From Candidatus Uhrbacteria bacterium RIFCSPHIGHO2_12_FULL_60_25 (lineage in GTDB: Bacteria > Patescibacteriota > Patescibacteriia > 2-12-FULL-60-25): a stretch of DNA of 53,935 nt. Under the pieces are notes generated by a model. It saw only the letters and a list, made by a program, of their open reading frames with translations. It was not told the origin of the DNA and searched no databases. Of the stretch, positions 27,559-28,845 are shown one piece after another (position 1 is the first letter of the stretch; every line of letters starts with the position of its first letter). The DNA is taken from the NCBI GenBank assembly GCA_001791275.1, contig MGEH01000004.1, forward strand, positions 38,934-92,868, given 5' to 3'. The position numbers were made by a program, and so were the translations under genes.

Positions 27559-27587
27559 TTGACAGAATTATCAATCTGTGATATTCT
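27559..27587 (+). promoter_or_regulatory. Promoter P1 of RNA1: TTGACA-N17-TATTCT
   Basis: cTTGACAgAATtatCAATCTGTGATATTCTTcCCGGTC; nearly identical to P2. Confidence 0.85.
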
Positions 27588-27593
27588 TCCCGG

Positions 27594-28387
27594 TCCAGTT
27601 GGTTCACGCCTGCTGGTCAAGAAGGGTCTCACGACCAATCAATTCGAAGGTGCTGTGCCCCAGGTCAGCAATGACTCAAGGCCCATGCACGTTTGAGCCA
27701 CTGGACAGCCGGCGACGGTGGACAGTGGTCTGGTCGGGACGCGAGAACGTCCCTGATTCAGCCGGATACAGCTGCGGATGAATCCGGGTTAGCCACACCC
27801 TGATTCAACCGTCCGGAACGCGCGTTTAGCCACAACGTCGCGATTCAGCTGAAAGCGGGACTGTGCCAGATGTCCCTGCGTAAGACGGCCGCATATCTTT
27901 CCCGTCAAAACTCCCGGCCCAGGCGTAAAACCCTGGGCCCTTCACTCTCTCCGTGGGTTACAGCTCACTGTTCTCGTCTCGAGCCCAGTGAGGTGCAACC
28001 CGACGCTACGTGTCGGGGGAGGTCGGCTCCTCCAAAAGCAAATCGGCCAGGGTCATGTCTTATGGTCAGACCGACCACGATGACCCCCCTGGCCTCCACG
28101 CAGCTACGTACGCGATTGGTTAGCCACACCGATCCGTCCGTTGGTTCATTCCGTTAGCCATACGGAATGTAAACGCTGAAGCGGATCCTTCACATAGGGA
28201 TCCGACCCAATTCTCAAGAGCTCCTGATGTAAAAGTCAGTTGAAGCTCGAGAATGCGGGGGTCAAAAGCCGTCTCGGGGAAGACACCACCCCAAACCGAC
28301 TGGTGCTGACACCAAACGCCGTGCTGCAAGACATGGCGTGTCGGTCCAAGTTCTAACCCCCTCAGGCAACTGAGGGGGTTTTTCTTT
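27594..28387 (+). ncRNA. Large structured RNA 1 (~790 nt), four UUAGCCACA/UUAGCCAUA-loop hairpins
   Basis: Promoter upstream, intrinsic terminator at the 3' end, dense stable helices (e.g. GGCCCAGG/CCTGGGCC, GGCCAGGGTCA.../TGACC..CCTGGCC, CGGATCC/GGATCCG, CATTCCG/CGGAATG, CTCACTG/CAGTGAG), no credible ORF. Confidence 0.85.
28355..28387 (+). terminator. Terminator of RNA1
   Basis: AACCCCCTCAG-GCAA-CTGAGGGGGTTTTTCTTT. Confidence 0.92.
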
Positions 28388-28398
28388 GTCAGGGGGAC

Positions 28399-28427
28399 TT
28401 GACAAAATCGGCAATCTGTGATAAAGT
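28399..28427 (+). promoter_or_regulatory. Promoter P2 of RNA2: TTGACA-N17-TAAAGT
   Basis: cTTGACAaAATcggCAATCTGTGATAaagTTtCCGGTC. Confidence 0.85.
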
Positions 28428-28433
28428 TTCCGG

Positions 28434-28845
28434 TCGTACATTGTGTCTGGATTCCCAGACGAAAGGCCACTGTCATGCCCCTTCTGCTATTTCATTTATG
28501 ACGGGTGCAGTCCGATCAATGCACGCGTGAAAAATCATGGGTTAGCCACACCCATGCCCGCGGATGACGCGCGAGTCGTACGAATTCGTCCAGTTTTAGG
28601 TCCGTATCTTGGTCGTATAGGCCCTCTCTGTTTAGCCACAGCAGAGTGACACGATACGGAAAACCGGGACGACGATAAACGCGGATGCATCGAACCTTTC
28701 GGAACTGCACTCGTGCAATGGCGCGTCGTGCTGAAGGGGGTAGACCCTGACAGTACACGTCGCAAGACGCGATGGAATCCATGTTTCATCACGTCGAAAC
28801 AGGTTCTCAAGCGCCCTCGGATACTCTCCGGGGGCGTTACACTTT
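28434..28845 (+). ncRNA. Structured RNA 2 (~410 nt), two UUAGCCACA-loop hairpins
   Basis: Own promoter, 3' hairpin CGCCCTCGGA-tactc-TCCGGGGGCG, helices GTCTGG/CCAGAC, CATGGG/CCCATG, CTCTGT/GCAGAG. Confidence 0.82.

What the first reader, a model, noticed from the sequence alone, without database searches (positions are those of the whole stretch)
27559..28845. Two tandem large structured RNA genes (~790 and ~410 nt) of unknown class
A 1.38-kb gap between two minus-strand genes has no credible ORF. On the plus strand it shows two complete transcription units. Unit 1: TTGACA-N17-TATTCT, dense stable helices including multi-branch ones (e.g. ACCGAC[TGGTG..CACCA][ACGCC..GGCGT]GTCGGT), and a terminator with GCAA loop and T-tract. 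Unit 2: TTGACA-N17-TAAAGT, helices, and a GC hairpin. I cannot match either to rRNA, tmRNA, RNase P, SRP, 6S or a known riboswitch. The size and compact folding recall ornate large RNAs such as OLE, GOLLD and ROOL, but I see no shared signature motif.
Basis: partly seen in the sequence, partly recalled or inferred. Interest (0 to 1): 0.95.

Follow-up and report, generated by a model that had tools for sequence, protein, structure and literature searches.

The report
Twin structured RNAs with repeated loops
A small uncultured bacterium (a relative of Candidatus Uhrbacteria) carries two side-by-side genes for long folded RNAs that match no known RNA family and display the same seven-letter loop on six different hairpins, as if offering repeated docking sites for an unknown partner.

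Summary
Between two minus-strand genes lie two ORF-free plus-strand units, each with a TTGACA-N17 promoter and an intrinsic-terminator-like hairpin: about 790 nt (z -7.8) and 410 nt (z -4.8), with no Rfam family match. Both RNAs carry the heptaloop UAGCCAY, closed by a U-A pair, on six hairpins (four plus two). The stems differ but stay paired: 6 of 7 stem positions change on both sides, 93% of cells are paired, and 0 of 500 shuffles match this. The loop 9-mer TTAGCCACA occurs once more in the 0.98-Mb genome. That copy is also a hairpin, in the structured leader of an orphan gene whose minus-strand cluster starts with the same rare promoter. No homologue was found in several hundred sampled relatives or in phage and plasmid records; the only metagenome copies are identical. 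So there is no cross-species covariation. Most AAA-VWA loci lack it. Best reading: two related orphan ncRNAs presenting repeated binding hairpins, probably decoys for an unknown RNA-binding protein (CsrB/CsrC-like logic, not membership). RNA-level selection is well supported; the decoy mechanism is inferred. Membership in OLE, GOLLD or ROOL is not supported.

The parts
27559..27587 (+). Promoter of RNA 1 (TTGACA-N17-TATTCT, TG before the -10)
   Evidence: 78% alike over 41 nt to the promoter of RNA 2
27594..28385 (+). RNA 1, about 790 nt, non-coding, structured (ends estimated from -10 and terminator)
   Evidence: z -7.8; no ORF with a Shine-Dalgarno; no Rfam family match
27769..27851 (+). Module A: local three-way junction CAGCU/AGCUG holding hairpins 1 and 2
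   Evidence: local fold, (outer helix not in the full-length MFE)
27779..27807 (+). Hairpin 1, loop UAGCCAC at 27790-27796
   Evidence: pair probabilities 0.9-1
27819..27842 (+). Hairpin 2, loop UAGCCAC at 27827-27833
28101..28178 (+). Module B: local three-way junction CAGC/GCUG holding hairpins 3 and 4; followed, like module A, by GAA(A)GCGG
28114..28134 (+). Hairpin 3, loop UAGCCAC at 28121-28127
28147..28169 (+). Hairpin 4, 8-bp stem, loop UAGCCAU at 28155-28161
28355..28385 (+). Intrinsic terminator of RNA 1 (11 bp, GCAA loop, T tail)
28399..28427 (+). Promoter of RNA 2 (TTGACA-N17-TAAAGT)
28434..28845 (+). RNA 2, about 410 nt, non-coding, structured
   Evidence: z -4.8
28536..28556 (+). 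Hairpin 5, loop UAGCCAC at 28543-28549
28626..28646 (+). Hairpin 6, loop UAGCCAC at 28633-28639, inside a small three-way junction 28601-28660
   Evidence: pair probability about 0.6 in the full-length fold
28810..28847 (+). Terminator of RNA 2; its T run overlaps the stop codon of the VWA gene on the other strand

Best explanation
Two related non-coding RNA genes, each with its own promoter and terminator, present the same hairpin-loop ligand (U-[UAGCCAY]-A on a variable stem) four and two times. Most likely each loop docks one copy of an unknown RNA-binding protein. The two RNAs would then titrate or cluster that protein away from mRNA targets, one candidate being the structured leader of the orphan gene at G000:C17:16208-16846(-), which has the only other copy of the loop 9-mer in the genome. 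Shown: the units, folding beyond shuffles, the repeated loop with compensatory stems, and the sequence link to C17. Inferred: transcription, the protein partner, the decoy effect.
For: The loop 9-mer TTAGCCAYA occurs six times against 0.11 expected, all on one strand and in this locus only. All six are loops of stems of 4-8 bp. By background rate a T-N7-A site has a stem of 4 or more in 6% of cases and of 7 or more in 0.5%. Stems differ but pair: 93% of cells, 6 of 7 positions changed on both sides, covariation 0.93 against 0.21 shuffled, and slid controls fail. G-U pairs occur in hairpins 2, 3 and 6 in the plus-strand sense, which favours RNA rather than DNA. Loops are 89-99% unpaired in full-length ensembles. 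No 5-mer complementary to the loop 9-mer lies in the RNAs (0.65% of shuffles), so loops look kept free and have no partner inside. TTAGCCACA occurs only once more in the genome; there it is again a hairpin with a 6-bp stem (chance about 1.2%), in a leader with z -6.4, in a cluster led by the same promoter (29 nt at 86%). Since the genome holds no other copy on either strand, no other mRNA offers a full 9-nt antisense target, which favours a protein partner.
Against: No expression data and no protein candidate. No homologue in another species, so no cross-species covariation. Only one candidate target, itself at E 0.07 for the whole genome. Decoy RNAs usually serve many mRNA sites; here the sites are nearly all on the RNAs. 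Hairpin 6 forms with probability of only about 0.6 in the full-length fold.
Confidence: 0.4

Rival explanations
1. Ornate structural RNA: the RNAs fold into a large scaffold, perhaps oligomeric like ROOL or GOLLD, with the heptaloops making kissing or tertiary contacts between chains.
For: Size, branched folding and repeated three-way-junction modules. GOLLD, ROOL and OLE form homo-oligomers through kissing loops and A-minor contacts (PMC12286853).
Against: The loop is not self-complementary, and no 5-mer complement of the loop 9-mer exists in either RNA, so loop-loop pairing within or between these RNAs is unlikely. No Rfam match to any of the three.
Confidence: 0.17
2. Regulatory or base-pairing RNA whose UAGCCAY loops pair with 6-7 nt of target mRNAs or another RNA.
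For: Open loops; depletion of complementary 5-mers within the RNAs.
Against: No other mRNA can hold the full 9-nt complement, as the genome has no further copy. Identical loops on many hairpins are unusual for such RNAs (general knowledge).
Confidence: 0.13
3. Non-coding remnant or spacer material of a lineage-specific accessory element of the C17/G033 kind: a strong promoter followed by small orphan ORFs separated by heavily structured spacers. The hairpins would be stability or processing elements duplicated inside it, without a trans-acting role.
For: The same promoter leads a 7-kb cluster of small orphan ORFs with structured spacers in the same genome, and a similar layout exists in G033. 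The locus is absent from sampled relatives. In G140 the same loop tops a terminator-like hairpin.
Against: Drift would not keep six loops identical while stems change in compensation, nor two intact promoters and terminators.
Confidence: 0.22
4. cis-acting antisense unit of the AAA-VWA operon: transcription against the VWA and AAA genes, or promoter competition, regulates them.
For: In G022 the same gap holds a different structured unit in the same antisense orientation, with promoter and T-rich end.
Against: Other VWA-AAA pairs (G403, G053, G276, G159) have gaps of about 40-165 nt and no room for such an RNA. The G022 unit shares no detected sequence with the window. The RNAs end before the VWA coding sequence.
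Confidence: 0.06
5. Eroded coding sequence with chance structure.
For: Stop-free frames of up to 117-123 codons.
Against: No Shine-Dalgarno on the plus-strand frames, no codon-position GC pattern in the longest ORF, no Pfam match for it, and the compensatory stems.
Confidence: 0.02

Closest known systems
CsrB/CsrC (RsmY/RsmZ) protein-titrating sRNAs
   Same: A pair of separate RNAs, many hairpins with one identical loop motif and otherwise different stems, different numbers of sites in the two RNAs; [quoted passage not shown]
   Different: Loop is UAGCCAY, not a GGA loop; six sites instead of 27; no Rfam match; partner protein unknown; only one candidate target.
GOLLD / ROOL / OLE ornate RNAs
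   Same: Long (about 400-800 nt), branched, compact non-coding RNA of unknown function.
   Different: No covariance-model match; not in phage records; orphan in one species; loops lack pairing partners in the RNAs.
Structured leaders and spacers of small-ORF clusters in the same family (G000:C17, G033)
   Same: Same or similar rare promoter, heavy structure; C17 shares the heptaloop hairpin.
   Different: The window units carry no ORFs and end in their own terminators.

Membership tests
CsrB/CsrC/RsmZ | Rfam covariance match | tested here: not met
   no hit to these families at E up to 10
CsrB/CsrC/RsmZ | GGA in the repeated hairpin loops | tested here: not met
   repeated loop is UAGCCAY
CsrB/CsrC/RsmZ | Many hairpins with one identical loop in a standalone RNA (works-like feature) | tested here: met
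   six hairpins in two RNAs
CsrB/CsrC/RsmZ | Titrates an RNA-binding protein | not testable with these tools
   needs pull-down
GOLLD (Rfam) | Covariance-model match | tested here: not met
GOLLD (Rfam) | Phage or prophage context, often near tRNAs | tested here: not met
   glycolysis genes around it; no match in 50,697 phage records
ROOL (Rfam) | Covariance-model match | tested here: not met
OLE (Rfam) | Covariance-model match | tested here: not met
GOLLD / ROOL / OLE | Homo-oligomerisation | not testable with these tools
   needs native gel, mass photometry or cryo-EM
New conserved ncRNA class | Homologues with covariation in other species | tested here: not met
   none in the sampled genomes of the class and phylum; only identical metagenome contigs

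The most novel reading that the evidence does not exclude
A new, lineage-restricted riboregulatory system in Patescibacteria: twin decoy RNAs with a UAGCCAY heptaloop ligand, an unknown RNA-binding protein that reads it, and a regulon sharing a special promoter and small-ORF operons with structured leaders.
Probability: 0.25. Interest if true: 0.85.

Novelty: new variant of a known kind. Interest (0 to 1): 0.55.

Why it matters
I found no paper on structured non-coding RNAs in these bacteria in the library searched (exact-phrase searches only). If the loop binds a protein, it would be a titration system built on a loop unlike the known GGA loops, in an organism with about 1 Mb of DNA. Loop-baited pull-down makes this directly testable. 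Even if not, the locus shows how within-genome repeats can supply covariation evidence for an orphan RNA with no homologues.

Tried and rejected
Rfam at gathering and at E 10: nothing relevant. DNA search in 61 genomes of relatives: only the window and a promoter-sized match in G033. Paired-loop pattern in 121 relatives and in 401 genomes of the phylum: only the own genome, plus three matches that by inspection of the printed sequence do not look like hairpins. Same pattern in viral contigs: 79 stretches; none with several hairpins of varied stems like these. Hairpin model on 401 class genomes: no second cluster; weak hits are single, and one strong single hit is a terminator-like hairpin in G140. 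VWA scans: the metagenome gave only identical contigs; genomes gave Ca. Uhrbacteria SJ877, whose contig length equals that of G022 contig 4. Idea that the RNA is a conserved partner of AAA-VWA: rejected, most pairs lack it. Promoter likeness alone as homology: weak, since the G022 promoter also recurs in relatives. Phage and plasmid records: no match. Promoter in viral contigs: none. Homologues of the C17 gene: four distant unnamed proteins, none in viral contigs. RNA1-RNA2 11-nt complement: expected by chance for their lengths (own estimate).

Full report
Observation. The gap between the AAA gene (24876-27461, minus) and the VWA gene (28846-31044, minus) has two plus-strand units. Each has a consensus promoter with a TG before the -10, and each ends in a terminator-like hairpin. 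The promoters are alike over 41 nt and are the only TTGACA-N12-TGTGA sites on either strand of the window. Folding beats dinucleotide shuffles for both RNAs: z -7.8 for 27588-28388 and -4.8 for 28428-28845. In 250-nt pieces the plus strand reaches z -1.4 to -4.9. This is not unique in the window, since other intergenic hairpins are stronger. Structure alone would therefore not carry the case. No plus-strand ORF has a ribosome-binding site.

The signature motif. TTAGCCAYA occurs six times in the window, all on the plus strand inside these units, against 0.11 expected. Every copy is the loop of a hairpin: GGGU, GCGUU, GAUUGGU, CAUUCCGU, CAUGGGU and CUCUGUU stems around UAGCCAY. Aligned on the loop, 93% of stem cells pair and six of seven stem positions carry changes on both sides. 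The covariation score is 0.93 against 0.21 in shuffles and 0.16 or less in slid controls. A random T-N7-A site in DNA of this genome has a stem of four or more pairs in 6% of cases and of seven or more in 0.5%. Such covariation among paralogous hairpins of one genome is what selection on RNA structure with a fixed loop should give. Loops stay 89-99% unpaired in the full ensembles. No 5-mer complement of the loop 9-mer exists in the RNAs. The pairs 1-2 and 3-4 sit in similar local three-way junctions with CAGC/GCUG closing and GAA(A)GCGG after it, so RNA 1 looks like a partial internal duplication.

Elsewhere in the genome. TTAGCCACA occurs only once outside the locus in 979 kb. That site (C17:16951-16959, minus) is again a hairpin, AAGGGU[UAGCCAC]ACUCUU; a six-pair stem has a chance of about 1.2%. 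The hairpin model ranks it seventh in the genome, at 19 bits and E 0.07. It lies in a 217-nt leader with z -6.4 of an orphan gene that has four distant relatives in 5.8 billion proteins. The same minus strand, some 6 kb upstream, has a third copy of the promoter (29 nt at 86%). Between them lie small orphan ORFs and structured spacers. Neither coincidence is strong alone; together they make a shared regulon plausible. G033 has a similar promoter and the same kind of layout, but one search shows that strong promoters in this family can look alike.

Distribution. No homologue was found. The tests were a DNA search in 61 genomes, the paired-loop pattern in 121 relatives and 401 phylum genomes, the hairpin model in 401 class genomes, and phage, plasmid and viral collections. 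The two metagenome contigs found are identical to the window. Most VWA-AAA pairs have nothing there.

Mechanism. Repeated identical loops on unlike stems, no internal partner and no other full complement in the genome point to a protein reader. CsrB and CsrC are the model: two RNAs with 18 and 9 binding sites that sequester CsrA, which prefers GGA in hairpin loops (PMC4347634). Here the loop and family differ, so this is an analogy of working, not membership. The protein, the binding and the effect are inferred. Main rivals are an ornate scaffold RNA and an accessory-element remnant.

Verdict. Two real orphan structured ncRNA genes are likely (my estimate about 0.85). The decoy mechanism is a reasoned guess (0.4).

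Noticed in passing
G000:C17:16200-23250 (minus strand; L176, L181, L182): A 7-kb cluster of small orphan ORFs without Pfam matches, separated by heavily structured spacers (z -3 to -9), led by the unit-1-type promoter; includes a 1.3-kb stretch (22061-20743) without a credible ORF, and three similar CCAGACC...GCCTGG hairpins near ORF starts.
   Followed up: partly
L005:7287-12020 (G033): Similar promoter, 470-nt structured leader (z -6.7), then small ORFs with structured spacers (z -5 to -12); one ORF is DUF1232.
   Followed up: partly
L101:5783-6193 (G022): A different structured unit (z -5.5) with promoter and T-rich end, antisense between VWA and AAA.
   Followed up: partly
window 48750-48850: Near-perfect inverted repeat with long arms, probably a terminator or small repeat element.
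   Followed up: no
window 52150-52240: Very stable long hairpin of about 30 bp built on GGGGCGACCCACCGGGTCGCCCC, z -10 in its piece.
   Followed up: no
L176:2245-2610 (minus): tmRNA gene directly downstream of the C17 small-ORF cluster on the same strand.
   Followed up: no
L162:5709-5741 (G140): Single terminator-like hairpin with the same U-[UAGCCAC]-A loop in another family of the class.
   Followed up: partly
G000:C16:1024-4247 (L103): A second, distant AAA-VWA pair in the same genome in the order AAA then VWA.
   Followed up: no
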